In this document: positions 2,444 through 27,321 of the stretch, one piece after another
Layout of the letters: each line of letters starts with the position of its first letter
How positions within the stretch are numbered: the first letter of the stretch is position 1
Program-made: the position numbers and the translations under genes
Source: a virus
IMG/VR virus record: IMGVR_UViG_3300044766_000192
Location: 1-64,000 of that record
Reading direction: 5' to 3' (one strand)
DNA: 64,000 nt
The notes under the pieces: generated by a model
What the model saw: the letters and a program-made list of their open reading frames with translations, nothing else
Database searches by the model: none
What the model was told of the DNA's origin: nothing

Positions 2444-2652
2444 GCTGGACCTGCGAAAAGTGCGGAACGGCGCACGACACGGACGCTCAACGTGAAGACT
2501 GCAAGAAAGCTCAGCGCGTGGTCACGTTCTGGGCTCTCAGCATCTTGCTCGGCCTGGTGATCGTGATCGCTGTTCCCGTGTTCCTGTGGAACCAGTATTG
2601 CTACGGCGACTGGAAGTGCGCGGTCATGCACTGCGTGAAGGTCGTCAAGTGA
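2440..2652 (+). CDS. zinc-knuckle plus TM protein, 70 aa
   Basis: An N-terminal MSWTCEKCGTAHDT motif resembles a short zinc ribbon and is followed by a TM helix at about residues 30-51 and a Cys-containing tail. The ATG at 2440 overlaps the previous stop (ATGA) and is preferred over the GTG at 2416. It may tether a small cytoplasmic domain to the membrane. Function unknown. Confidence 0.6.
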   Translation: MSWTCEKCGTAHDTDAQREDCKKAQRVVTFWALSILLGLVIVIAVPVFLWNQYCYGDWKCAVMHCVKVVK

Positions 2653-5024
2653 ACGAGGCTGCTTGTCTGCTCTGTCAGCGTCGGCTCGACGGTACGACCG
2701 CGCCGGGAATCTATCTTCATGAAGTCGCCGAAGACTGCCTCGTGCGCGTGGCTGATCAGTTTGGTGTCTCGCTCGACGACGACTACGAAGTCAAAGGCGA
2801 TGAGATCTTCTCTAGAGCCCAGAGCGGCTACATCGATCCAGATGACGGCGCGATCGAGCTGACGCAGTTCTTCTCGACGGATCAGGCGATCAGCCAGATC
2901 TTCGCCGAGAAGAAAGTCCCACGACTCGGTGGCATTTCGAGTGGCAGCGGCTGGAGCAACGTCTCGCTGTTCCAGAAATGCCCGTACGCATGGAAGCGAC
3001 GCTACCTCGATCGAGTCGAGCAGCCGAACATCCTCGGTATCGTCGGCGAACCACTCGCGCTCGCGATCGGCTCGCTCACGCACGTGTACCTCGCGATTCA
3101 TTACTACCGGATGATCACACCGGGCTATCCACTCACCGTCGAAGACGTTAACCAGCGGATGCGCGAGCTGGGTTGCAATCCGGCCATCTTCAACGAAGCG
3201 TGGCGGTTGTTCACAGGCTATCGGCTCTACTACAAGAACGAGATACTCGAACCGCTCGCCGTAGAGCACGATCTGAAAGATCCGCGCACCGGCCACTCGT
3301 GCCGCTACGACTTGATCGCGTTCATCCCCGATGAGAGCCCGGGGATCTTGCCGGGGACCTACATCGTCGAAAGTAAATGCTTGACGGGTGACTCGCTCGT
3401 TCACGATTACAATACGAGTCGCTTGGTCAGAATGGACGAGCTGTTCAGACGCGGAATCGCTCCAAAGGTCCTTTCCTATGATTTAGCTACCGGAAGGCTT
3501 GTTCAAGCACAGGCGCTTGTTCCAGTTGCTAACACCGTACGGCCTATTTACGATGTCGTTTCTGAGAGTGGGCGCCGAGTTAGAGCTTCTGATAACCACC
3601 CGATCTTGACGGCTCGTGGCTGGATTTGTGCGGGAGATCTAAAGTCAGGCGATTGGATTGCTGTTGCAAAAAACACGGGCGGCTTGCAACGAGCTTCGCG
3701 TTTCACGGACGCTGAGGTTCGCTTCCTCGGTTTCATGCTCTCTGAGGGCTATCTTACTGATCTCGCGTTTTCGCAGGTGGCTGGGCCTGTGTTCGATGCG
3801 TTTGTTGAGACGCTTTACGCAATGGGGTTCTCTGAGGATGGCAGTACGATTCACACTTTCAGACGAGAGCAGAAGAACTATTCGTTGAAGGACGGCACGC
3901 CATCCACGCTTCACACCATTCGTTTGTCGACGAGCAAAGGCAGCCCAGCGCGAGAACTGATCGGTGATCTCGGTCTATTCGGATTGCGCTCAGCCCAGAA
4001 GCGCGCCCCAGAAGAATTCAACGAGCTATCTGATCATCAAGTTGGAATCTTCCTGGGGGCCTTATGGGATGGCGATGGTTGTCAGTGTGCCGACGAAGCT
4101 CGAACGGACGTGACAATCAAGCACGGATCAAGATCTCGGGCTCTGTGCGAAGCTTCGCGTGATTTGCTCTTGCGTTTGGGTATCCACGCAACAGTTCGAG
4201 CATCGTGGGCTACGTTCAACGGCGTGCGCTACGATGTCTACAACACAACGGTTGTTGGTCGCCCGTCGAAGCGCGTTTTCTTAGATCGTGTGATCGATGG
4301 AACGATTCAATCCGTTCGCTTGATTTCGACTGCCATTGCTCTACGCGAGCGACTAATCGATGGTGATGACACGCTCATACCAGTTGCCTGCATCGTAGAT
4401 GAGCTAACCGAACAGCGCTTGAAAATTCCACGGGTCTACAACGGCACGAGGCAGCTCTCGTCAACGGTTCTCAACAAGTTCAAGAGCCAACCATCGTCTG
4501 CTTTGGAACGTCGAACACTATTCAAGTGGGCCGAGGATCTCCCGTTACTCAAGAAACACGCAGAAACAGAGATCTGGTGGGAACAGATCGAATCGGTTGT
4601 CATTTCAGGCGAGGAACGGACTTACGACTTGACTGTTCCCGGCCAACAAAACTTTGTTGTCAATGGTGTGATCACGCACAACACGACGGCGCGCTTCGAC
4701 TCGAATTCTCTTGAAGGCTGGAGCAACGACGGCGAAGTCTTGGGCCAGGTCGATCTCTGGGACCGGCTTCACCTCGATCGTCGATACGGTCCGCTGCGCG
4801 GCGTGATCATCAACTTGCTCGGCAAGCAGAAAGTCGCCGAGTATCATCGAACGATCGTGAGCCCGTCATCGTGGCAGATCGAACAGCACAGGCTCGATCT
4901 CCGTCGCTGGAATGGGCTCATCCAGCTCGCTAAATCTTCAGACTCGTTTCCTCGCGCTCGAAACAGCTGTGTTGGCCGTTTTGGGAAATGCGGGCACTGG
5001 GATCATTGCGCCTCGGGAGAATAA
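2649..5024 (+). CDS. RecB/Cas4-like PD-(D/E)XK nuclease with intein
   Basis: The precursor is 791 aa and the spliced protein 356 aa. The start GTG overlaps the previous TGA. A Cys pair (CLLC) is near the N-terminus. The segment SNVSLFQKCPYAWKRRYLD is the RecB-family motif, and the catalytic E-x-K strand is VESK, then the intein, then TTARFD. Restoring the extein gives the continuous active-site strand IVESKTTARF. Such nucleases act as phage recombination exonucleases, and this one sits upstream of the Sak4-like and DUF669-like genes, a frequent replication/recombination trio. Nuclease class is well supported. Substrate polarity is not readable. Confidence 0.85.
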   Translation: MNEAACLLCQRRLDGTTAPGIYLHEVAEDCLVRVADQFGVSLDDDYEVKGDEIFSRAQSGYIDPDDGAIELTQFFSTDQAISQIFAEKKVPRLGGISSGSGWSNVSLFQKCPYAWKRRYLDRVEQPNILGIVGEPLALAIGSLTHVYLAIHYYRMITPGYPLTVEDVNQRMRELGCNPAIFNEAWRLFTGYRLYYKNEILEPLAVEHDLKDPRTGHSCRYDLIAFIPDESPGILPGTYIVESKCLTGDSLVHDYNTSRLVRMDELFRRGIAPKVLSYDLATGRLVQAQALVPVANTVRPIYDVVSESGRRVRASDNHPILTARGWICAGDLKSGDWIAVAKNTGGLQRASRFTDAEVRFLGFMLSEGYLTDLAFSQVAGPVFDAFVETLYAMGFSEDGSTIHTFRREQKNYSLKDGTPSTLHTIRLSTSKGSPARELIGDLGLFGLRSAQKRAPEEFNELSDHQVGIFLGALWDGDGCQCADEARTDVTIKHGSRSRALCEASRDLLLRLGIHATVRASWATFNGVRYDVYNTTVVGRPSKRVFLDRVIDGTIQSVRLISTAIALRERLIDGDDTLIPVACIVDELTEQRLKIPRVYNGTRQLSSTVLNKFKSQPSSALERRTLFKWAEDLPLLKKHAETEIWWEQIESVVISGEERTYDLTVPGQQNFVVNGVITHNTTARFDSNSLEGWSNDGEVLGQVDLWDRLHLDRRYGPLRGVIINLLGKQKVAEYHRTIVSPSSWQIEQHRLDLRRWNGLIQLAKSSDSFPRARNSCVGRFGKCGHWDHCASGE
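3378..4682 (+). mobile_element. LAGLIDADG intein in the RecB-like nuclease (435 aa)
   Basis: Residues 244-678 of the precursor. It starts with Cys (CLTGDSLVHD, block A), has block B at ASDNHPILT, two LAGLIDADG-type helices (FLGFMLSEGY and FLGALWDGDG) and ends with a block F/G stretch finishing VNGVITHN before extein Thr. It is inserted directly after the catalytic Lys of the nuclease. All splice residues (C1, TxxH-like His, HN, T+1) look intact, so it should splice and could home. Confidence 0.93.
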
Positions 5025-8211: not shown

Positions 8212-11200
8212 ATGGTTGCCGTTGCCGAGCAACGTGTGAGCTTGCCGTTGCTTCGCGGCAGTGCTGAGGGCGCGGATTGTATGGCGTGCCCTTTCTCGCA
8301 CGAGGGTCAGCCGAATCGCCCCGTGTTCTCGGAGCATCCTGAGAAGCCGCTGTGGATCTTGATTGGCGAAGGCCCCGGCTTCAATGAAGTCCGTTTTGGT
8401 CGATGCTTCGTTGGAGCATCGGGCTCCGAGGTCGACAAGATTCTGACGAAGATCGGCCGCCCGCGCGAAGAGATCTACGTCGGCAACGCGACGCTTTGCG
8501 TTGATGGCTCAACAAATGTTCGACTCGGCGATGGTTCACTTGGGCGCATCGACCAACTCGTCAAGAGTCGATACTCAGGTTTGGTTCAATCAGTAGCGGC
8601 GGATGGAAGCGTCGTACTTCGCAGAGTGATCGGCTGGTACAGGAACAAGCGTGGTCTCCGTGAAATGCGCGAGGTCTCTACGCGAGGGGCTCAGCACACT
8701 GGTGGGCTCGGGCGGATTCATACGACGATGACCGAAGATCATCCCGTTTTGACCCCTGAGGGTTGGAAAGTAGCTGGAGAGCTGAATGGCGGATCGATCG
8801 CAACCGGCGATCTAGATCCAGGACACATTGGGCAACAGATCGCATACGGCACACTGCTAGGTGATGGAACGCTGCAACGAGGATCTCTCATCGTCCGTCA
8901 CGCCGTCGATCAAGCAGAGTACGCCATGCTCAAGGGGCAGGCGTTGTCTGGGATTGGCATTGGTTTGATCGAAGCGCCTCCGCACGGAAATCAGGTTCAA
9001 CGACAAGTCGGATTCAGAACTAAGGCTGGCTTGTGGGGGCATGCACTTCGATCTTCGTTCTATCCCGACGGAAAAAAACGAATCCCAAAAGAAGTCATCT
9101 CAAACGCGAGTATTTTGTTGTTTGCGATCTGGTATCTCGATGATGGCTCGATGAGCCATCGTGCCGAAAGTGGAAGAAAGCCGCGTGCAGAGATTTGCGG
9201 TGTGGCTTTTCCAGAAGAAGATCTGTTGGCGGCATCAGCCTCACTGAGATCTCTCGGCTTCGAGAACCGGGTTTATCGGGGGCGGATTCAGTTTGGTGTT
9301 GAAGCCTCTGCGAAATTCAGTCGAGCCATTGCTCGATTCGTTCCGCCGAGCATGAGCTACAAGTTGAGACCAGAGGATCGTGATCTATACGATCCGACCA
9401 CATTTCAGGCTGCGTCGGCCATTCCGTTTTTCGCTAAGGCTGATAGCGTTTTTGTGAGTCCGCGAGGGAAGCGTGAGCAGTCAGCGGTGTACTGCTTAGA
9501 AGTAGAGGATACGCACAACTTCATCACGCCAGCCGCAGTCATCCACAACTGCATCCCGAAGCCTGGCAGCACCGACGTTCACAGAAACCAAGCCGCAGCG
9601 GCGTGCAGAGAGCGAATGCAGCGAGAGCTGTCGCAGTTCCCCGGCATCCCGATCCTGACGCTCGGCGCTGTCGCTGCGCGCAGTGTCATCCCGAAAGAAG
9701 CGCTCGACGCGATCGATCCGCCAGATGTTCCTGAGTCTAAGCAAAAGCGCCAAAAGAAACGTCAGGGCGCCGAGACCGATGTCAAACAGAAGCGCGAAAA
9801 GCGGCTCGGCAAGCTGGAGCTGCTGGAGCTGCGAATCTTCAGGGAGCTGCTCGACTACCACAAGCGTGGGATCGCCGACGAGATCCGCCAGCGGTTCAAG
9901 AAGAAGGCGACGCACGCGCAGATCGAAGAGAGGCTAGAGCTTGAACGAGCGCGCCAGGGTATTGAGATCAAGGCCAAGGCCGACGCGCTGATCGAGCTGG
10001 AACAAGTCGAGGTCGAGAAGGCGAAGAAGCCCAAGAAGAAAAAGCCGATCAAGATCAGCGACATCGTGAGCACGTGTTTCGACGTCGACGTCGATGGCTC
10101 GGGTCTGCGCCCGGTGATTCCCGGGATTCATCCGGCGGCGCTACTACGCGGTGGCGGGCGCTCGATCGCCGGCAGTCATACGCCCGATCTCGCGTTCGTA
10201 AACCTGATGTACGACTTCGGCAAGATCGACGCGCTCGCTCGTGGCAAAGACGTTCGGCTCAAGCTCAACGTCGAGGTCGAAGGTCAAGACAGCGCCAAAG
10301 CTACGCGGCTATTCGTCGAGGCGATCCAACGGGCTTTCGACGAGGGCGAGGTAGCAATCGACCTTGAGACCTACGTCGATGATCCGTTGCGCCACCACGC
10401 ACTCATGGCCTACGTCGCGAAGATTCGCGCGATCGGCTTGGCAACGAAAGAGAAATCGATCTCGGTGCTCTGGGATCTGATCCAGCCGTGGGGGCTCTCG
10501 TACTTTCAGGCGATGCTGGCTACAGCCGACATCAAGATCGTCACCCAGAACGGGATCTACGATCGAACGGTCTTGCGCGCCAACGGCTACGAGATCTGCG
10601 GCGACAACTTCGAGGACACGCTGTACGCCCATCACTCGGCGTTTCCTGGTTGTGCGCACAACCTCCAGCAAATCACGGCGCAGTTCTTTGCCGTCTCACC
10701 GTGGAAGTGCTTGCAGGCTGATACAGCTGTTTTGCTGCCAGATCGCTCGACGATATCGATTCGCGAGGCAGTTCAACGGCGGATCCCGGAAGTCCTCTCC
10801 TATGAGGATGGGCAGATCGTTCCTAAACGGGTGCTTGGCTGGCACGAGGCGCGTGCTCCGGGTCAAGCGTGGGTCTCCATCAAGACTGAGCGCAGCGACG
10901 CGAAATACAATCGAGGGCTCATCGTTACTCCGAATCATAGGGTGATGACGCAACGAGGGCTTGTAGAAGCTCAAGAGCTGATCGCTGGGCAAGATCGAAT
11001 TGCAATTGATGAGCCACAACTATCGGACGATCAGATTTCAACGGCGATTGGAACGCTCTTAGGTGACTCAAGTGTGTTTGTCAGCCGTTCGTATCATCAT
11101 CGACCTTGGGAAGCCTCAAGAGCTAGTATTCGTGGTGGGCACGCCAACGAGGGGCTCCGCGATTGTAAGGCCGAATCGCTTGCGCTTGGGACCTCCGGGC

Positions 11201-14200
11201 AGTGTGTGCCTGCACATTCTCGCGTGTCGGGGGGCGTGACCATCAACGCTTCAAACTTCTACGCCTACGGTACAAGGTGGGCCTTTCAGTACATGCAGAT
11301 CGCAAAGCTCGTCTACGACGACGAGTGGAAGCGCCGAATCAAAGCCAAAGCGCTCGAAGTTCTTGGTCGTCGTGGGCTTGCCATGATGTACATGGACGAT
11401 GGTGACCTCCATAAGACCAAACAAACTATTGGGGCAGGTTTTGCGACGAACGGCTTTCCGCTAGAAGACGTTGAGCTGTTCGTTGGATGGTTGAAGGGCA
11501 AGTACGGGGAAGTTAGCATCTACAACTCGCGTGGGCCTTACGTGGCGATGTCGACCGTCGCGACTAAAAACATGCTTGAGGATCTTCGCGGGTTCATTCA
11601 CCCATCAGTCAAGTACAAGACCATTTTCGATGATCCATTCAAGCCCGTTATCAAAGGATATGGTGCTTACCACGCCGCGATTAGGTCTGTTGATCGGATT
11701 GATCGTGTGGCCTTGCGCAAGGGTCGTAGCTCACACGCAACTGACTATCGGTATTGCCTGTCCGTCGAGGATACGCAGCTATTCTATACGAACTACGGGC
11801 TTGTCTCGAACAGCGAGTTTCGCAACGCCGAGGAAGACACCGCGCGATTGCTTGCGTACAACGCCAAAGACACGGGCGCGACGCTCGCGATCAGGCCGGC
11901 GATCGAAATCGTCGTCAAGAAAAACGCGAACGAGCGGACCTACGCGATCGATCTAAAGATGGCCGAGATCGCGAGCCGCATGCACCGCGTCGGCATGCCG
12001 GTGTCGCGCGAGGTCAATTCCGAGCTGCTTACGACGTTCAGTAAGAACGTTGCCGAGGGCCGACAGCACGTCGAAGCTATCGCGAACGATCCGAAACTCC
12101 ATGAGGGAATCTTGCATCATCTCTCGTTGGAGCAAGCCAAGATCCAGCGCAAGGCCGACAGCATCGACTTCGAGGAACGCTACAATGCACGCCGCGGCAA
12201 GATTCTGACCGACGAAGCCAAAGGCAAATGGCGCTGGAAGATCTCGGCTGCCAAGCACGTCGCGGCGTTGCTTCAAGCGATCGGCGTGAACCTGCACCAA
12301 GTCACTAAGAACGGCTCGATCTCGACGAAGAAAGAGATCCTAGAGTCACTCGTTGACGTGCCGATCGTTCGTGATCTGCTCTTGTTCCGCGAAAACGACA
12401 AGCTCCTGTCAACGTTCATCTGGCAGATCTTCGATCGAACCGTCGATGGGAATATCATCCAGCACGGCTTCGCTGACGCCAACGATCGCATCCACCCGAT
12501 CTGGAACGTCCACAAGATCTCGGGCCGGTGGGCGAGCTACGAGCCCGTCGTCTCGAACGTCCCGAAGGCCAAGTACAAAAAGCTCGAAGGCGGCAAGCTC
12601 AAGCTCGTGCGGCCCAACTTGCGCCGACAGGTTCAGGTGACGCGCAAAGGTCGCAAGCTCGTTGGCTTCGATTTTTGCTTGGCGAAGGGAACCCTCGTTG
12701 ACACGCCGAACGGTCACACGCCGATCGAGAAGTTGAAAATCGGTGACCTCGTGTTCTCGTACAATCACGAAACGCAGCGTCCTGATTGCTCGCGCGTGTC
12801 ACAGCGCCTTTTCACCGGGATGCAGAAAACATTGAAGGTGATTCTCGACAATGGGGAGGAGGTTCGTTGCACAGCGAACCATCGGTGGCTAACGCGCAAG
12901 TATGGGTCTGGCCGAGCTGTCTTCGAGGTTGAAGCTAGCGATCTGAAGCCCGGAATGCGCCTGCTACCGTTGCGTCGAACGTATTCGGGCCCAGAACGAA
13001 GCTATGAGATCCTCTACTCGTATTCGGCATTCGAATACGTCAAGACGCATGTCGTTGTGGCAAAGGCACATCTTGGAGATCGGCCAAAGGGCCACGACAT
13101 CCACCACCGCAATGAGAACCCTAAAGACAATCGCCCAAGAAACCTCGAATACAAGCTCGAACATGATCATCTCGGTGAGCACAGCGCCTCCAATACCTCC
13201 GCTCAGTGGAAAGATCCGGCTACTCGCCAGAAGATGGTTGAGGGGATTTCAGCTTCGATCAAAGCACGTGGCGGTTATCACGGAGCCAACAACCCAAACT
13301 TTGGGAAGCGCACTGGTGAAGATGGTACGTGCCCGAATTGCGGAGCCGACACTTACTTCGGTGGAAAACACCCGAAGCGCTTCTGCTCTAAGCCTTGCTT
13401 CTACGAATTCAGGCGAACCAATCCTCGAAGGAGAGGTGAGAAATACGATGACCTTAACCACAAAGTGGTCGCCGTCATTGATGACGGGCTCGTCGTTCCT
13501 ACCTACGATATCGAAGTCGAGCGAGATCACAACTTCGCGCTAGCAGCCGGCGTTTTCGTCCATAACAGCCAACTTGAAGCTAGAAATCTTGCGTTGATCT
13601 CCGGCGACGAATTCTTGTGCAAGATCTTTGCAGAGGGCCGCGATATCCATACCGAATGCGCGCGAGTGATCTTCAAGGGCTTCGATCAACGTGAGGAGAA
13701 AGAGCGCAAACAGCTCCGCGATCTCACCAAGCAGATCGAATACGGAACCTTCTACGGTGGTAGCCCTGAGACCTGTTGGAAAGTCCTACTCAAAGATGGC
13801 CACAACGTCAAACTCGTCGATGTCGCTGCGTCGATCGGCACGCTTATGCGGCAGATGCCCGGGATCGTGCGTTGGCAGCGTCAGACTGTCGCCAAGGCGT
13901 CACTACCGCCGTTCACGATTCGCGATTTCGTGCTCGGGCGGCGCCGTGTATTCCCGATGGGTCAGGTTGATCCCAACGAGGCGTTGAATTTTGAGTCACA
14001 GGCGACCGCCGCTGCGATCATGGACACCGGCATGGCCGCGATGGACGCGCGGATTATCGATCAGGGCTACAAAGAGGTCGACTGCATCGTGCAGGTTCAC
14101 GACGCGGCGGTATACGAAGCGTGGGAAGATGATGCCGAAGACATCGCGCAAGACATCCATGAATGCTTCTCGCAGCAATACGAGCGCGATGGCCGGACGA

Positions 14201-14250
14201 TCCCCTACCCCGTCGATGTCAAGATCGGCGACTCGTGGGATCAGATGTAA
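8212..14250 (+). CDS. polA: UDG - exonuclease - family A DNA polymerase fusion with three inteins
   Basis: A 2012-aa precursor, about 996 aa after splicing. The N-terminal domain is a family 4/5-type uracil-DNA glycosylase with CMAC, motif GEGPGFNEVRFGRCFVGASG and a later Cys, which fits a 4Fe-4S enzyme. A charged linker follows. The 3'-5' exonuclease has VAIDLETYVD (Exo I), TQNGIYDRTVL (Exo II) and LLAYNAKDT (Exo III). The Pol A palm has motif A split by an intein (DF, then SQLEAR), a motif B region and motif C IVQVHDAAVYE. It is the likely replicative polymerase. UDG-Pol fusions are known in phages. Three inteins in one gene are exceptional. Confidence 0.93.
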   Translation: MVAVAEQRVSLPLLRGSAEGADCMACPFSHEGQPNRPVFSEHPEKPLWILIGEGPGFNEVRFGRCFVGASGSEVDKILTKIGRPREEIYVGNATLCVDGSTNVRLGDGSLGRIDQLVKSRYSGLVQSVAADGSVVLRRVIGWYRNKRGLREMREVSTRGAQHTGGLGRIHTTMTEDHPVLTPEGWKVAGELNGGSIATGDLDPGHIGQQIAYGTLLGDGTLQRGSLIVRHAVDQAEYAMLKGQALSGIGIGLIEAPPHGNQVQRQVGFRTKAGLWGHALRSSFYPDGKKRIPKEVISNASILLFAIWYLDDGSMSHRAESGRKPRAEICGVAFPEEDLLAASASLRSLGFENRVYRGRIQFGVEASAKFSRAIARFVPPSMSYKLRPEDRDLYDPTTFQAASAIPFFAKADSVFVSPRGKREQSAVYCLEVEDTHNFITPAAVIHNCIPKPGSTDVHRNQAAAACRERMQRELSQFPGIPILTLGAVAARSVIPKEALDAIDPPDVPESKQKRQKKRQGAETDVKQKREKRLGKLELLELRIFRELLDYHKRGIADEIRQRFKKKATHAQIEERLELERARQGIEIKAKADALIELEQVEVEKAKKPKKKKPIKISDIVSTCFDVDVDGSGLRPVIPGIHPAALLRGGGRSIAGSHTPDLAFVNLMYDFGKIDALARGKDVRLKLNVEVEGQDSAKATRLFVEAIQRAFDEGEVAIDLETYVDDPLRHHALMAYVAKIRAIGLATKEKSISVLWDLIQPWGLSYFQAMLATADIKIVTQNGIYDRTVLRANGYEICGDNFEDTLYAHHSAFPGCAHNLQQITAQFFAVSPWKCLQADTAVLLPDRSTISIREAVQRRIPEVLSYEDGQIVPKRVLGWHEARAPGQAWVSIKTERSDAKYNRGLIVTPNHRVMTQRGLVEAQELIAGQDRIAIDEPQLSDDQISTAIGTLLGDSSVFVSRSYHHRPWEASRASIRGGHANEGLRDCKAESLALGTSGQCVPAHSRVSGGVTINASNFYAYGTRWAFQYMQIAKLVYDDEWKRRIKAKALEVLGRRGLAMMYMDDGDLHKTKQTIGAGFATNGFPLEDVELFVGWLKGKYGEVSIYNSRGPYVAMSTVATKNMLEDLRGFIHPSVKYKTIFDDPFKPVIKGYGAYHAAIRSVDRIDRVALRKGRSSHATDYRYCLSVEDTQLFYTNYGLVSNSEFRNAEEDTARLLAYNAKDTGATLAIRPAIEIVVKKNANERTYAIDLKMAEIASRMHRVGMPVSREVNSELLTTFSKNVAEGRQHVEAIANDPKLHEGILHHLSLEQAKIQRKADSIDFEERYNARRGKILTDEAKGKWRWKISAAKHVAALLQAIGVNLHQVTKNGSISTKKEILESLVDVPIVRDLLLFRENDKLLSTFIWQIFDRTVDGNIIQHGFADANDRIHPIWNVHKISGRWASYEPVVSNVPKAKYKKLEGGKLKLVRPNLRRQVQVTRKGRKLVGFDFCLAKGTLVDTPNGHTPIEKLKIGDLVFSYNHETQRPDCSRVSQRLFTGMQKTLKVILDNGEEVRCTANHRWLTRKYGSGRAVFEVEASDLKPGMRLLPLRRTYSGPERSYEILYSYSAFEYVKTHVVVAKAHLGDRPKGHDIHHRNENPKDNRPRNLEYKLEHDHLGEHSASNTSAQWKDPATRQKMVEGISASIKARGGYHGANNPNFGKRTGEDGTCPNCGADTYFGGKHPKRFCSKPCFYEFRRTNPRRRGEKYDDLNHKVVAVIDDGLVVPTYDIEVERDHNFALAAGVFVHNSQLEARNLALISGDEFLCKIFAEGRDIHTECARVIFKGFDQREEKERKQLRDLTKQIEYGTFYGGSPETCWKVLLKDGHNVKLVDVAASIGTLMRQMPGIVRWQRQTVAKASLPPFTIRDFVLGRRRVFPMGQVDPNEALNFESQATAAAIMDTGMAAMDARIIDQGYKEVDCIVQVHDAAVYEAWEDDAEDIAQDIHECFSQQYERDGRTIPYPVDVKIGDSWDQM
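8497..9549 (+). mobile_element. LAGLIDADG intein in the UDG domain (351 aa)
   Basis: Residues 96-446 of the polymerase precursor. It starts CVDGSTNVRL, block B is TEDHPVLTPEG, the two endonuclease motifs are YGTLLGDGTL and IWYLDDGSMS, and it ends VEDTHNFITPAAVIHN before extein Cys. The +1 Cys, in spliced ATLCIPKPG, aligns with the conserved iron-sulfur Cys of family 4 glycosylases. The intein therefore sits at a cofactor ligand. Confidence 0.92.
10708..11811 (+). mobile_element. LAGLIDADG intein in the exonuclease domain (368 aa)
   Basis: Residues 833-1200 of the precursor. Block A is CLQADTAVLLPDRS, block B is IVTPNHRVMT, the endonuclease motifs are AIGTLLGDSSV and MMYMDDGDLH, and the end is LFYTNYGLVSN before Ser. 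Here the penultimate residue is Ser instead of His, an atypical but known variation. The spliced extein reads VSPWKSEFRN, as in other phage polymerases. Confidence 0.9.
12676..13566 (+). mobile_element. HNH-type intein in polymerase motif A (297 aa)
   Basis: Residues 1489-1785 of the precursor. It starts CLAKGTLVDTPNGHTPIEKL, block B is CTANHRWLT, and the end is DHNFALAAGVFVHN before Ser. Between the splicing blocks is an HNH endonuclease (IHHRNENPKDNRPRNLE) followed by a four-Cys zinc finger (CPNC, then CSKPC). This differs from the LAGLIDADG type of its two neighbours. It splits DF from SQLEAR, the catalytic Asp strand of polymerase motif A. Confidence 0.92.
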
Positions 14251-14433: not shown

Positions 14434-16956
14434 ATGGAGCTGACTTCAGAACAGCAAGCGATCGTCGCCTTCGTTGCAGCGAACAAAGGCAACCTCGTCA
14501 TCGAAGCGCTCGCCGGCACCGGCAAGACGTTTTGCTTGCTCGAAGCGCTGAATGTTCTGCCTCAGAAGTCCGCGCTCGTCTGCGCGTTCAACAAGCAGAT
14601 CGCCACCGAGATTCTTGGCAGGCTCCCAGTTCTGCCCCGAACACGCGTTGTTCACGTCAAGACGTTCCACGCGCAGGGTCTCGCGATCATCAAGAAGCAT
14701 TTTCCCGGTGTAAAGATCGGTGCAGAGGCGACGGAAGACATCATCAACACGGCTGGTACGACGCTCAAAACGCCCTTCAACGCGAAGCGCGCGGCTGTGA
14801 AGATCCTACGCCAGTGGAAAGAGCAGACGACGGCGCCGTTGCTGATCCCGACCGAAGAGGAGATCTTGGCGCTCGGGCTCGATCGAGATTTGTTCGGCCG
14901 CCTTGGCGACATCAACATCCAGGCGACGATCGATGCCGTGCGCCTCGGCTATCGATTGTCTCTAGAGACCAAGGCGCCCGAGACGATCGACTTTTGTGAC
15001 ATGGTGTGGTTGCCGATCGTCAAAGACCTCGCGCCGCCGTCGCGCTATCAGGCGATTCTCGTCGACGAACTACAAGACATCTCGCCGCCGCAGTTCGAGC
15101 TGATGCGCCGGCTTCTGATTCCCGGCGGTCGATTCATCGGCGTTGGTGATCGCAACCAATGCCATCCAGCTGGCGTGCTCATACAAACGACAGTCGGGCA
15201 AATACCGATTGAGCATCTCGATCCGAAACGACACAAGATCATCCCGTGGAATCGAAAGGCGCAACGCTCAACCGGCCAACGATCTTTCAAACTCGCATCG
15301 TGCCGATACGCGGGTGCCTTGCTGAAAGTTTCAACAATCGACCATTCTGTTGAAGTGACCCCCAATCACAAATTCCTTTGCCGCTGGGCGAAGCGGTCCG
15401 ACGTTTATATCACGTACATTATGCATCGTGCTGATCGTGGTTATCGAGTGGGTTGGTGCCAGCTATTCACAAAGGACAAGCACCTGCACTTCGTTACGCG
15501 ATGGCATCTTGAGCAAGCTGATGCTGCTTGGATAGTTGCTGTTCACGATACTCGTGAGAAAGCCTCGATCCATGAGAGCATTCTTGCTGCGAAATATGGT
15601 TTGTTCACCGCGACATTCAAGCCGGTTAATGCTCAGCGGCATCGTGAAGAAGCGGCTATCAAAAAGATCTTCGCTGGAGTTTCGCTTGTTGATCAACGCG
15701 ATCGGGCTCGGCGCTGTCTAACGGAGTACGGTCGAGATCTAGCCCTGCCGTTCTTTCCTAGACCGGGTAAGAATCCGCGAGATCACGATGGTCGGCCGAC
15801 TTACTTCATCACGCACGCGGCCAACTTAATTCCGGGTTTGATGACACTCCCTTTGCCTGATGGTCAAAATCGATGGACTTCGATTACCGGCGTCGAGCGT
15901 CGGATTTTCAAGGGTTTGATTTACTCACTAGATGTCGATATCGATCATAACTACTCAGCAGATGGATTGATCGTGATGAATAGCATTTACGGTTGGCGCG
16001 GTGCTGATGCGGATAAGGCTTTTCGATTTGCTAGGGAACAGTTCGGCGCCAAGTTCTTGCCGCTTACGACGTCGTTTCGTTGCTCGACGACCGTGGTTCA
16101 TGAGGCTCAGCAACGCGTGCCCGATCTCAAAGCGCACCCTGAAGCCGTGCCCGGTAGCGTCTCGCATGCGAGGCTATCGCAGCTGCCGCACCTGCTCGCG
16201 CGCGGCTACTCCGAGACGATCCATACGTTCATCTTGTCGCGCAACAACGCGGCGCTACTCGATGCCGCGATGTACCTGTGGCGCGAAAAGGTCTCGTTCC
16301 AGATCAACGCCGGGCGCGAGATCTTGGAGCCGCTGTACGGGATCATCGACGGACTACGCCTGACCTCGACCGACGATTTCAAGGTCAGCGTCGGGCAATG
16401 GCACGCTGCCGAGATGTTCCGCGCCGAGAGGTCTGGGTCAACAGCGTGGGCCGATCGCATCGACGAGCAGGCGAAGATGTTGCTCGCGACAGCAGGCTAC
16501 ACGGCGCCAAAGAAAATAAAGCAGCTATTCCAAGAGATGCTCAAGGCTAGCGGCTCGGGCGTGTTGTTGTCGACGGTGCACAAGGTCAAGGGCCTCGAAG
16601 CCGATCGCGTTTTCTTGCTCAAGCAGACGTTCGCGTGTGGTCGAGTAGTCGACGACGACGACGATCGCCCGCCACCGCAAGAAGAGATCAACATCGAATA
16701 CGTCGCGATCACGCGCGCTCGCGAGCACCTGACTTGGGTCGACATCGATCCGCAGGCTCGCGTCGTGGTCAATGCCGAGGACGAGCTTGACAGGCTGCCC
16801 GAATGCACCGACGGCCTATCGATAGGCGAGATCGGAGATCTCTTCGTCTACGCCGAGCGTCGAGCGCTGGAGCTGATGGAGAGCGATGAAGCGCTCGCCG
16901 ATCGCTGGATGGCCCGCGCCGAGATGTTGAACAAGGTGATGAAAGAGGCTCGATGA
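14434..16956 (+). CDS. UvrD/Rep-like SF1 helicase with intein
   Basis: 840-aa precursor, 566 aa spliced. Walker A is EALAGTGKTF (residues 24-33), the DExx box is VDELQD (about residue 210), motif III is VGDRNQ then, after the intein, SIYGWRGAD. Motif IV-like TTSFRCS, motif V STVHKVKGLEADRVF and motif VI NIEYVAITRAREHL are in order. It unwinds DNA 3'-5' in replication or repair. The helicase domains are compact, without the large 1B/2B inserts of UvrD. Its end overlaps the next gene (ATGA). Confidence 0.92.
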   Translation: MELTSEQQAIVAFVAANKGNLVIEALAGTGKTFCLLEALNVLPQKSALVCAFNKQIATEILGRLPVLPRTRVVHVKTFHAQGLAIIKKHFPGVKIGAEATEDIINTAGTTLKTPFNAKRAAVKILRQWKEQTTAPLLIPTEEEILALGLDRDLFGRLGDINIQATIDAVRLGYRLSLETKAPETIDFCDMVWLPIVKDLAPPSRYQAILVDELQDISPPQFELMRRLLIPGGRFIGVGDRNQCHPAGVLIQTTVGQIPIEHLDPKRHKIIPWNRKAQRSTGQRSFKLASCRYAGALLKVSTIDHSVEVTPNHKFLCRWAKRSDVYITYIMHRADRGYRVGWCQLFTKDKHLHFVTRWHLEQADAAWIVAVHDTREKASIHESILAAKYGLFTATFKPVNAQRHREEAAIKKIFAGVSLVDQRDRARRCLTEYGRDLALPFFPRPGKNPRDHDGRPTYFITHAANLIPGLMTLPLPDGQNRWTSITGVERRIFKGLIYSLDVDIDHNYSADGLIVMNSIYGWRGADADKAFRFAREQFGAKFLPLTTSFRCSTTVVHEAQQRVPDLKAHPEAVPGSVSHARLSQLPHLLARGYSETIHTFILSRNNAALLDAAMYLWREKVSFQINAGREILEPLYGIIDGLRLTSTDDFKVSVGQWHAAEMFRAERSGSTAWADRIDEQAKMLLATAGYTAPKKIKQLFQEMLKASGSGVLLSTVHKVKGLEADRVFLLKQTFACGRVVDDDDDRPPPQEEINIEYVAITRAREHLTWVDIDPQARVVVNAEDELDRLPECTDGLSIGEIGDLFVYAERRALELMESDEALADRWMARAEMLNKVMKEAR
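15160..15981 (+). mobile_element. intein in the UvrD-like helicase, no LAGLIDADG (274 aa)
   Basis: Residues 243-516. It begins CHPAGVLIQTTVG, block B is VTPNHKFLC, block F is YSLDVDIDHNYS and it ends DGLIVMN before Ser. The penultimate residue is Met, not His. Between blocks B and F there is no LAGLIDADG or HNH motif. A segment WIVAVHDTREKASIHESILA and AAKYGL is of unknown type. It may be a degenerate or unfamiliar endonuclease, or only a linker. Confidence 0.88.
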
Positions 16957-26168: not shown

Positions 26169-26434
26169 CGAATGATTCTCCTGTCTGGCGCCATGGTGAT
26201 GTGTTCTGGCGGTCCGACATCCATTCCATATTGCCGTGTAGGGACGAACGGGATGAATGCGAAGCGTCGCCCGTCCTTTTGCACTGAGCCGTACTCCGCA
26301 GATGTCGAATCGACGACGACGCCTCGTGCCTGCGTTTCAACGATACGATGTGCGATTAGCTTGAGGCCCCACGTGACTACATCGCCAACCTTGAATTTCT
26401 TGGCGAGCTTTTTCTGAACGGCTCGACAACTCAC
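26165..26434 (-). CDS. hypothetical SH3-like beta protein, 89 aa
   Basis: GTG start overlaps the integrase TGA. FKVGDVVTWGLKLIAHRIVE suggests a small beta-barrel of the kind found in phage and restriction-related proteins. The rest (RFAFIPFVPTRQYGM) is also beta-rich. No named family. Confidence 0.5.
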   Translation of the reverse strand: MSCRAVQKKLAKKFKVGDVVTWGLKLIAHRIVETQARGVVVDSTSAEYGSVQKDGRRFAFIPFVPTRQYGMDVGPPEHITMAPDRRIIR

Positions 26435-27321
26435 GGTTTCTTCCCCTTCCTGAATTCGGCGAGCTGGCCGGCAACGGCCTTGCCGCGCGAGCCTCGGTCG
26501 TATCGACGGGTCGTCTTGGAGTCACTGTGATGGACCGATGCCTGGATCTCGTACTCTGGGAGCCCGGCGTCGTAGCAAGCCGTGATGAACGCAGCACGGA
26601 AGCAGTGCGGATGAACGTTCTTGGCTCCGACGGCTTTGGCGCGTTCGTTGACGAGCTTGTTGATGGTGAGGGGATTCAGCGGTCGAATACCATCGGCGCC
26701 CGGAAACATGAATTCGGACGGTGGGGCAAGCCCTAGCCAGCGATCGATCGCTTCGATCGTGCTCTCGGGTAACTTGCTCTCGACTTCGTTGTCACCTTTG
26801 ACGATGGCTCGCAGAATCCCATCGAAGTAGTCGGCTCGCTTGAGTGCCGCGATAGATGCACGGCGCAGCCCAGTGTCATAGAGCAGCCGTAGGATCGCCG
26901 CATCGCGCGCTCCGCGAGTCTTGTCGAGATCTGCGACGGCGTTTGCGATCATCGCCTCGGCGTCGTCAGCCGCCACGAGCCGCGTCTTGTTGACTGTGGA
27001 CTCGGGGGGCCACGCCAGGACGCTGGGATGGAACGGGTTCGAGGTGACGACGCGACCCGCTAGCAGCACGCGGTAGATTCCCGATAGCGATGCGAGCGCG
27101 CGGCGGGCGCTCCCACGCGACAAGCCATCCCGAAACGCCGCTGCTGCGCTGAGCGGTGGCGAAATCGGCTTGCATCCGAATCGCTTGCAGAATTCAACCC
27201 AGTGATGCAAATCGGCTTGATACGCCTTCCGAGTGTTATCGGATCGTTTCGCGGCGATCAACGAAAGCGCTGCGCTTTCGAATTCGTCGACGGAGATTCG
27301 GATGAGAGCTTGGTCGGACAT
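26431..27321 (-). CDS. int: tyrosine recombinase (integrase/XerC-like)
   Basis: 296 aa. An N-terminal SAM-like core-binding domain (NTRKAYQADLHHWVEFCKRF) is followed by the catalytic domain with Arg in LYDTGLRRASI, HxxR in HPHCFRAAF, and HHSDSKTTRRYDR containing the last His and the Tyr nucleophile. All catalytic residues look present. It may integrate the genome, resolve multimers or invert a segment. Its upstream region shares two adjacent 11-mers with the iteron region at 35.4 kb, possible binding sites. Confidence 0.9.
   Translation of the reverse strand: MSDQALIRISVDEFESAALSLIAAKRSDNTRKAYQADLHHWVEFCKRFGCKPISPPLSAAAAFRDGLSRGSARRALASLSGIYRVLLAGRVVTSNPFHPSVLAWPPESTVNKTRLVAADDAEAMIANAVADLDKTRGARDAAILRLLYDTGLRRASIAALKRADYFDGILRAIVKGDNEVESKLPESTIEAIDRWLGLAPPSEFMFPGADGIRPLNPLTINKLVNERAKAVGAKNVHPHCFRAAFITACYDAGLPEYEIQASVHHSDSKTTRRYDRGSRGKAVAGQLAEFRKGKKP

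What the first reader, a model, noticed from the sequence alone, without database searches (positions are those of the whole stretch)
8212..14250. Uracil glycosylase domain fused to a polymerase, with an intein at its Fe-S cysteine
Joining UDG, proofreading and polymerase domains places uracil removal on the replicative enzyme, and the virus also encodes ThyX. The first intein's +1 Cys is the presumed cluster ligand, so cluster assembly would require splicing first. This could link iron-sulfur state to polymerase maturation.
Basis: partly seen in the sequence, partly recalled or inferred. Interest (0 to 1): 0.75.

Follow-up and report, generated by a model that had tools for sequence, protein, structure and literature searches.

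The report
Mobile intein inside phage uracil-repairing polymerase
A soil-type phage makes a DNA polymerase with a built-in uracil-repair domain, and a self-splicing mobile element (an intein) interrupts that domain exactly at an iron-sulphur cysteine; the fusion is already known, but the same intein also sits at that cysteine in several other phages and in cyanobacterial repair enzymes, which points to a spreading parasite rather than an iron-sensing switch.

Summary
ORF 8212-14250 (2012 aa) encodes a family-4-type UDG domain, a DEDD exonuclease and a family A polymerase, split by three inteins; removing them gives 996 aa. Intein-free relatives, one of them 83% identical, confirm every junction. 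Intein 1's +1 residue, Cys96, aligns with the third [4Fe-4S] cysteine of family-4 UDGs. All four cysteines and the main catalytic residues are conserved. A fold search with an intein-free relative returned solved UDGs.

The UDG-polymerase fusion is not new: SPO1-type phages, PaBG (published) and phiLo (PDB 9QHS) have it.

What I could not find described is the intein site. Related inteins occupy the same UDG cysteine in at least five other phage loci (PolA fusions and one DnaE fusion) and in stand-alone UDGs of 4 of 292 cyanobacterial genomes. Occupancy is sporadic. Phage inteins are more alike than the polymerases carrying them, and the homing endonuclease motifs are intact. Intein 1 is best explained as a homing element targeting a near-invariant codon. 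Splicing before cluster assembly is chemically reasonable, but nothing supports iron-sulphur state controlling polymerase maturation. UDG activity, cluster binding and splicing are inferred, not measured.

The parts
8212..14250 (+). Precursor of UDG-exonuclease-PolA polymerase, 2012 aa, 3 inteins, 996 aa after splicing
8212..8496 (+). N-extein: first part of UDG domain; cluster Cys23 (8278-8280) and Cys26 (8287-8289); motif 1 GEGPGFNE (E53, G54, E59), F66, N92
   Evidence: residue roles from PMC5387724
8497..9549 (+). Intein 1 (351 aa): class 1 splicing blocks (C1, TEDH, VYC block F, HN|C) with LAGLIDADG_2 endonuclease; inserted immediately before cluster Cys96
9550..9699 (+). Second part of UDG domain: Cys96 (9550-9552, +1 residue and third cluster ligand) and Cys114 (9604-9606)
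9700..10056 (+). Lys-rich, predicted helical insert (about 119 aa) inside the UDG domain, clade-specific (absent in L021)
   Evidence: dN/dS 0.032
10057..10224 (+). Last part of UDG domain with motif 2 IHPAALL (catalytic His289 codon at 10129-10131)
10312..10707 (+). DEDD 3'-5' exonuclease domain, first part
10708..11811 (+). Intein 2 (368 aa): LAGLIDADG_2, non-canonical end SN|S, between PWK and SEF
11812..12675 (+). Rest of exonuclease (YNAKD motif, 11857-11871) and start of PolA domain up to motif A DF
12676..13566 (+). Intein 3 (297 aa): HNH_3 type, inside polymerase motif A (DF|SQLEAR)
13567..14250 (+). PolA domain, C-terminal part, including the VHD motif
2586..5024 (+). PD-(D/E)XK (RecB/Cas4-like) nuclease with an intein at 3378-4682 inserted at its E-x-K motif (ESK|T); shared with L003
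14434..16956 (+). UvrD-type helicase with an intein at 15160-15981 in GDRNQ|SIYGWRGA; absent in L003
58019..58708 (+). ThyX, flavin-dependent thymidylate synthase

Best explanation
The gene encodes a phage replicative family A polymerase with an N-terminal family-4-type [4Fe-4S] uracil-DNA glycosylase domain. The precursor carries three independent inteins, one in each catalytic domain. Intein 1 is a LAGLIDADG homing intein whose insertion point is the codon of the third cluster cysteine of family-4-type UDGs. Its endonuclease would cut intein-free UDG modules at this near-invariant sequence and copy the element in. After translation it excises itself using Cys1 and Cys96 as nucleophiles and leaves Cys96 intact, after which the two halves of the UDG fold can meet and bind the cluster. 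The mature domain would remove uracil from DNA handled by the polymerase, with ThyX supplying dTMP. The intein is a tolerated mobile element that uses an indispensable cysteine, not a dedicated iron-sulphur switch. Shown: domains, junctions, empty sites, conserved ligands and catalytic residues, sporadic occupancy, related inteins in other hosts. Inferred: splicing, homing, cluster binding, glycosylase activity, action during replication.
For: Domains and junctions. UDG fold: AF2 model of the intein-free L003 UDG domain gives Foldseek PDB hits 1L9G, UdgX and 1UI0 with probability 1.00, E about 1e-7. Catalytic set of Tth UDG (E41, G42, E47, F54, N80, H155) present as E53, G54, E59, F66, N92, H289; dN/dS of UDG 0.086. 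Mobility: L003 (83% aa identity) lacks inteins 1-3 and the helicase intein but shares the nuclease intein; 4 state changes on the tree; same-site phage inteins 62-71% identical while their polymerases are 42-60%; intact GDG and DDG endonuclease motifs. Same site in other hosts: L014, L016, L021, L069 UDG-PolA and L063 UDG-DnaE, and cyanobacterial stand-alone UDGs, 4 of 292 genomes, with full, degenerate and mini forms. Possible co-conversion: identity to L003 falls to 63-67% at intein 2, against a median of 85%. Phage inteins commonly sit at invariant motifs (PMC5050341).
Against: No splicing, cleavage, cluster or glycosylase assay exists. The AF2 UDG model is modest (mean pLDDT 64), and it is of L003 because the spliced window protein could not be submitted. 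The Tth N89 equivalent is Gly101, and N92 is Thr or Tyr in three relatives. Two cyanobacterial UDGs keep mini-inteins without an endonuclease, so persistence does not always need active homing. No identity dip is seen around intein 1 itself.
Confidence: 0.75

Rival explanations
1. Conditional splicing switch. Intein 1 senses thiol redox or iron state through Cys1, the block-F Cys and Cys96, and holds back the uracil-repair domain, or the whole polymerase, until conditions are reducing.
For: Block-F Cys (intein position 333), in place of the usual Asp, is kept in all eight UDG-site inteins aligned. Redox control of splicing is documented for DnaB inteins and reported for the iron-sulphur scaffold SufB (PMC6195587). 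Two cyanobacterial UDGs keep endonuclease-free mini-inteins.
Against: Empty site in most relatives including the 83%-identical L003; occupancy scattered; the intein travels between unrelated UDG hosts; intein 1 lies outside the polymerase domain.
Confidence: 0.06
2. The UDG domain is a DNA-binding, uracil-sensing or processivity module rather than an active glycosylase, comparable to vaccinia D4 in its polymerase holoenzyme (comparison from general knowledge).
For: SPO1-type polymerases keep the domain without cluster cysteines; the UDG part fused to DnaE in phage nickie has lost the motif 2 His; Tth N89 is Gly here; N92 varies in three relatives. Fusion to PolA and DnaE separately suggests a replication role.
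Against: In this clade motif 1 GE[GS]PG (one SEGPG), E59, the motif 2 His and four Cys are invariant, under purifying selection; the H155S change that cripples Tth UDG is not seen here.
Confidence: 0.25
3. The domain is UdgX-like and cross-links itself covalently to uracil sites.
For: NCBIfam UdgX model scores best among UDG models on the unspliced protein (1.5e-14); UdgX structures among the fold hits.
Against: Motif is GEGPG, not the GEQPG of UdgX, and there is no KRRIH R-loop between Cys3 and Cys4 (UdgX features from the PMC10359453 abstract). The UdgX match is far below that model's cut-off (54 vs 190 bits).
Confidence: 0.02

Closest known systems
UDG-domain family A polymerases of phages (PaBG gp205, Thermus phage phiLo / PDB 9QHS, SPO1-type)
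   Same: N-terminal UDG, exonuclease and PolA in one chain
   Different: Those examined here have no intein at the UDG cysteine; SPO1-type lacks the cluster Cys; this clade has a 119-aa Lys-rich insert inside the UDG domain
Family-4 UDG (T. thermophilus UDGa, 1UI0)
   Same: Fold, four cluster Cys, motif 1 GEGPG, motif 2 His
   Different: Fused to a polymerase, large insert, N89 replaced by Gly, interrupted by an intein
Cyanobacterial stand-alone UDG with intein (L031 Cyanosarcina radialis, L060, L061, L062)
   Same: Same insertion codon (K|C..HN|CRPP) and related intein with block-F Cys
   Different: Stand-alone UDG; inteins 25-36% identical to the phage ones; two are mini-inteins; found here, no published description located
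Haloquadratum walsbyi PolB with three inteins (PMC10643990)
   Same: Replicative polymerase with three endonuclease-bearing inteins at conserved sites
   Different: Family B polymerase, other sites, no UDG domain
Inteins in SufB and mycobacterial DnaB
   Same: Intein in an iron-sulphur or replication protein; redox effects on splicing
   Different: Different host proteins; no splicing data for the present intein

Membership tests
Family-4 uracil-DNA glycosylase domain | UDG superfamily fold and sequence profile | tested here: met
   PF03167 3e-13 after splicing; Foldseek to 1L9G and 1UI0, probability 1.00, on the L003 domain
Family-4 uracil-DNA glycosylase domain | Four [4Fe-4S] cysteines C-x2-C ... 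C ... C | tested here: met
   Cys23, 26, 96, 114; invariant in intein-free relatives and aligned to 1UI0
Family-4 uracil-DNA glycosylase domain | Motif 1 E-G doublet, E47, N80, motif 2 His | tested here: met
   E53, G54, E59, N92, H289
Family-4 uracil-DNA glycosylase domain | N89 water-positioning Asn | tested here: not met
   Gly101 here; N89A costs Tth UDG only about 6-fold in k2, so this lowers rather than excludes activity; hence 'family-4-type', not strict membership
Family-4 uracil-DNA glycosylase domain | Cluster binding and uracil excision | not testable with these tools
   needs purified protein
UdgX | GEQPG motif and KRRIH R-loop with His109 | tested here: not met
   GEGPG; Cys3-Cys4 segment CIPKPGSTDVHRNQAAAAC, not conserved in relatives
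Family A DNA polymerase with 3'-5' exonuclease | PolA profile, motif A D-F-S-Q-x-E, exonuclease profile | tested here: met
   PF00476 2.6e-45, PF01612 3e-5; AF2 of L003 resembles Bst PolI
Class 1 intein with LAGLIDADG endonuclease (intein 1) | Cys1, block B TxxH, terminal HN, +1 Cys/Ser/Thr | tested here: met
   C1, TEDH, HN, +1 Cys
Class 1 intein with LAGLIDADG endonuclease (intein 1) | Two LAGLIDADG motifs with acidic residues | tested here: met
   GTLLGDGTL and IWYLDDGSM; PF03161
Class 1 intein with LAGLIDADG endonuclease (intein 1) | Empty allele in close relatives | tested here: met
   L003 and others
Class 1 intein with LAGLIDADG endonuclease (intein 1) | Splicing and homing activity | not testable with these tools
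   needs expression and cleavage assays
Redox- or metal-conditional intein | Splicing changes with redox state or metal | not testable with these tools
   only the cysteine inventory is visible

The most novel reading that the evidence does not exclude
One intein lineage has specialised on the [4Fe-4S] cysteine of UDG modules, in stand-alone bacterial enzymes and in viral PolA and DnaE fusions, and its splicing (Cys1, a retained block-F Cys, and the cluster Cys as +1) is thiol-redox dependent, so that uracil repair is switched off in oxidising or iron-poor cells while polymerisation continues. The distribution part is supported here; the conditional-splicing part is not excluded but has no direct evidence.
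Probability: 0.05. Interest if true: 0.8.

Novelty: new variant of a known kind. Interest (0 to 1): 0.5.

Why it matters
UDG-polymerase fusions and inteins at conserved motifs are both known. The addition is a recurrent intein site at a metal-cluster cysteine of a repair enzyme, shared by phage polymerases of two families and by cyanobacterial repair enzymes. It gives a tractable system for asking how inteins cross between hosts and viruses, and whether splicing and cluster loading on one cysteine are ordered or regulated. It also shows that phage polymerase genes with several inteins can be under-annotated: intein 1 alone splits the UDG match.

Tried and rejected
Reading the UDG as UdgX: rejected on motif and R-loop. 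Treating the fusion as new: rejected. Assuming the UDG-site intein was unique to this window: rejected. T5-like polymerase inteins as the same exonuclease site as intein 2: rejected, SelmaRatti's lies at the YACKDT motif, downstream of the intein 2 position. Streptococcus phage GXN1 does show an intein-like start at motif A (PDFCLTG), so the motif A site is not unique. RcKickapoo gave no motif A junction. Plasmids gave no match to the cyanobacterial UDG intein. dUTPase (PF00692) was not found in the 80-kb record. The spliced window protein itself could not be folded (tool rule), so the intein-free L003 was used. No paper found in the held library describes an intein in a UDG; that search covers open-access text only.
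Full report
What is in the sequence. The window is the first 64 kb of an 80,419-bp virus record. ORF 8212-14250 (+) is one open frame of 2012 aa. It contains a UDG match at its N-terminus, two LAGLIDADG_2 regions, an HNH_3 region, intein splicing signals and a family A polymerase C-terminus. Reading the splice signals gives three inteins: 96-446 (NATL|CVDG...VIHN|CIPK), 833-1200 (SPWK|CLQA...LVSN|SEFR) and 1489-1785 (GFDF|CLAK...FVHN|SQLE). The spliced protein of 996 aa scores better on all three domains: UDG 3e-13, exonuclease 3e-5, PolA 2.6e-45. Four intein-free relatives from IMG/VR (L003 83%, L004 60%, L005 58%, L006 58% identical) align straight across all three junctions, so the boundaries are not guesswork.

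The UDG domain. Searched against the PDB, the spliced N-terminus matches T. thermophilus UDG 1UI0 (1.4e-14), T. maritima UDG, UdgX and 9QHS. Cys23, Cys26, Cys96 and Cys114 are invariant in the intein-free relatives, which answers the second. Residues important in Tth UDG (PMC5387724) are present as E53, G54, E59, F66, N92 and H289; N89 is Gly101. Between the first and last parts of the domain the clade carries about 119 residues of Lys-rich helix, missing in the more distant L021. dN/dS against L003 is 0.086 for the first UDG part and 0.032 for the insert, so both are maintained.

The fusion is known. The SPO1L1 polymerase has UDG+exo+PolA but no cluster cysteines. phiLo has the cysteines, and its polymerase is PDB 9QHS. 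Rctr197k, Brevundimonas phage MaInes, Xanthomonas phage phiXF1, ctSAF950 and L018 are also fusions. The PaBG paper (PMC7412058) states that its DNA polymerase I contains a UDG domain, modelled on 1UI0. The DnaE-type polymerase of Pseudomonas phage nickie carries a UDG-superfamily domain at its C-terminus.

Intein 1 is one of a set at the same codon. In IMG/VR, L014 and L016 (same polymerase clade) and L021 (a 221-kb contig, polymerase only 42% identical) have an intein at the same UDG cysteine. L069 (UDG-PolA) and L063 (UDG fused to a DnaE-type polymerase; its intein is cut by the contig end, so only the N-junction is seen) have a further related intein there. A genome scan brought up Cyanosarcina radialis L031, where a stand-alone family-4 UDG is split at GNVVK|C...HN|CRPPGNR. 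In 292 cyanobacterial genomes, four have it; the three others were read out and show the same junction. Their inteins range from 358 aa with LAGLIDADG motifs (L060) through a degenerate 255 aa (L031) to mini-inteins of 173 and 164 aa (L061, L062). All eight aligned share C1, a T-x-D-H block, a Cys in block F (VYC) and HN. No published description of an intein in a UDG was found in the held library.

Evidence that it is mobile. The 83%-identical L003 is collinear with the window at about 84% nucleotide identity. It has the nuclease intein but lacks all three polymerase inteins and the helicase intein. On the tree of 12 polymerases the UDG intein needs four changes. Same-site phage inteins are 62-71% identical while the polymerases carrying them are 42-60%, so in the phages the intein is more alike than its host. 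In cyanobacteria it is the reverse (exteins 64-72%, inteins 41-55%), consistent with older residence. Identity to L003 falls to 63-67% around intein 2 against a median of 85%, and stays near 60-65% from residue 729 to the end, with intein 3 after residue 769 (dS 2.46 there against 0.5-1.1 elsewhere). This fits exchanged flanks, though ordinary recombination would also do it, and no such dip surrounds intein 1.

Mechanism. The most likely course is translation of the precursor, splicing of each intein on its own, then cluster loading of the restored UDG domain. Because Cys96 is both the splicing nucleophile and a ligand, and the site is split by 351 residues before excision, splicing should come first; this is inference. 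The three inteins each interrupt a different activity: uracil removal, proofreading and polymerisation. Relatives carry other combinations (L014: UDG and exo; L016: UDG and another site; L012: motif A only; L017: another exo site; L021: UDG only), so the set does not look like a designed system. Intein 1 need not affect polymerisation, which weakens the proposed link to polymerase maturation. Redox-sensitive splicing is known elsewhere (PMC6195587), and the block-F Cys makes it conceivable here, but nothing measured supports it.

Setting. Inteins also interrupt the RecB/Cas4-like nuclease at E-x-K (3378-4682) and the helicase at GDRNQ|SIYGW (15160-15981), giving five in about 14 kb. Kelley et al. 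(PMC5050341) report a PD-(D/E)XK motif site in mycobacteriophage RecB-like proteins, insertions next to invariant motifs as a theme, and frequent loss of the penultimate His in phage inteins, as in intein 2 (SN) and the helicase intein (MN). ThyX is present; a dUTPase was not found.

Verdict. Observation confirmed. The fusion is a known kind. The intein at the cluster cysteine is a real, recurrent and apparently undescribed site, best explained as homing into an invariant codon. The iron-sulphur maturation idea remains untested and unlikely.

Noticed in passing
L063:559-3900: Viral DnaE-type polymerase with a UDG domain that carries a related intein at the same UDG cysteine, so the intein follows the UDG module rather than the polymerase family.
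   Followed up: partly
L060, L061, L062, L031: Cyanobacterial chromosomal UDGs with inteins at the cluster cysteine in full, degenerate and mini forms, a ready series for studying endonuclease loss.
   Followed up: partly
L042:621-4010: Pseudomonas phage nickie DnaE-type polymerase has a C-terminal UDG-superfamily domain whose motif 2 His is replaced by Asn.
   Followed up: partly
window 3378-4682 and 15160-15981: Two more inteins in neighbouring replication genes; L003 shares the first and lacks the second.
   Followed up: yes
window 13567-14250: From about residue 729 the polymerase diverges sharply from L003 (dS 2.46 against 0.5-1.1 before), suggesting a recombination tract that includes intein 3.
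   Followed up: partly
L012:2917-4719 and L013:9721-12567: Apparent inteins near the Walker A motifs of an AAA ATPase and a UvrD-type helicase in related phages.
   Followed up: no
L039:3402-6347: Virus Rctr197k polymerase has an insert of roughly 70 aa between the third and fourth cluster cysteines of its UDG domain.
   Followed up: no
window 26431-27321 (-): Phage integrase (PF00589, 1.2e-19), suggesting a temperate phage.
   Followed up: no
L021 and L023: Identical 13-kb stretches in two IMG/VR contigs from differently numbered metagenomes.
   Followed up: no
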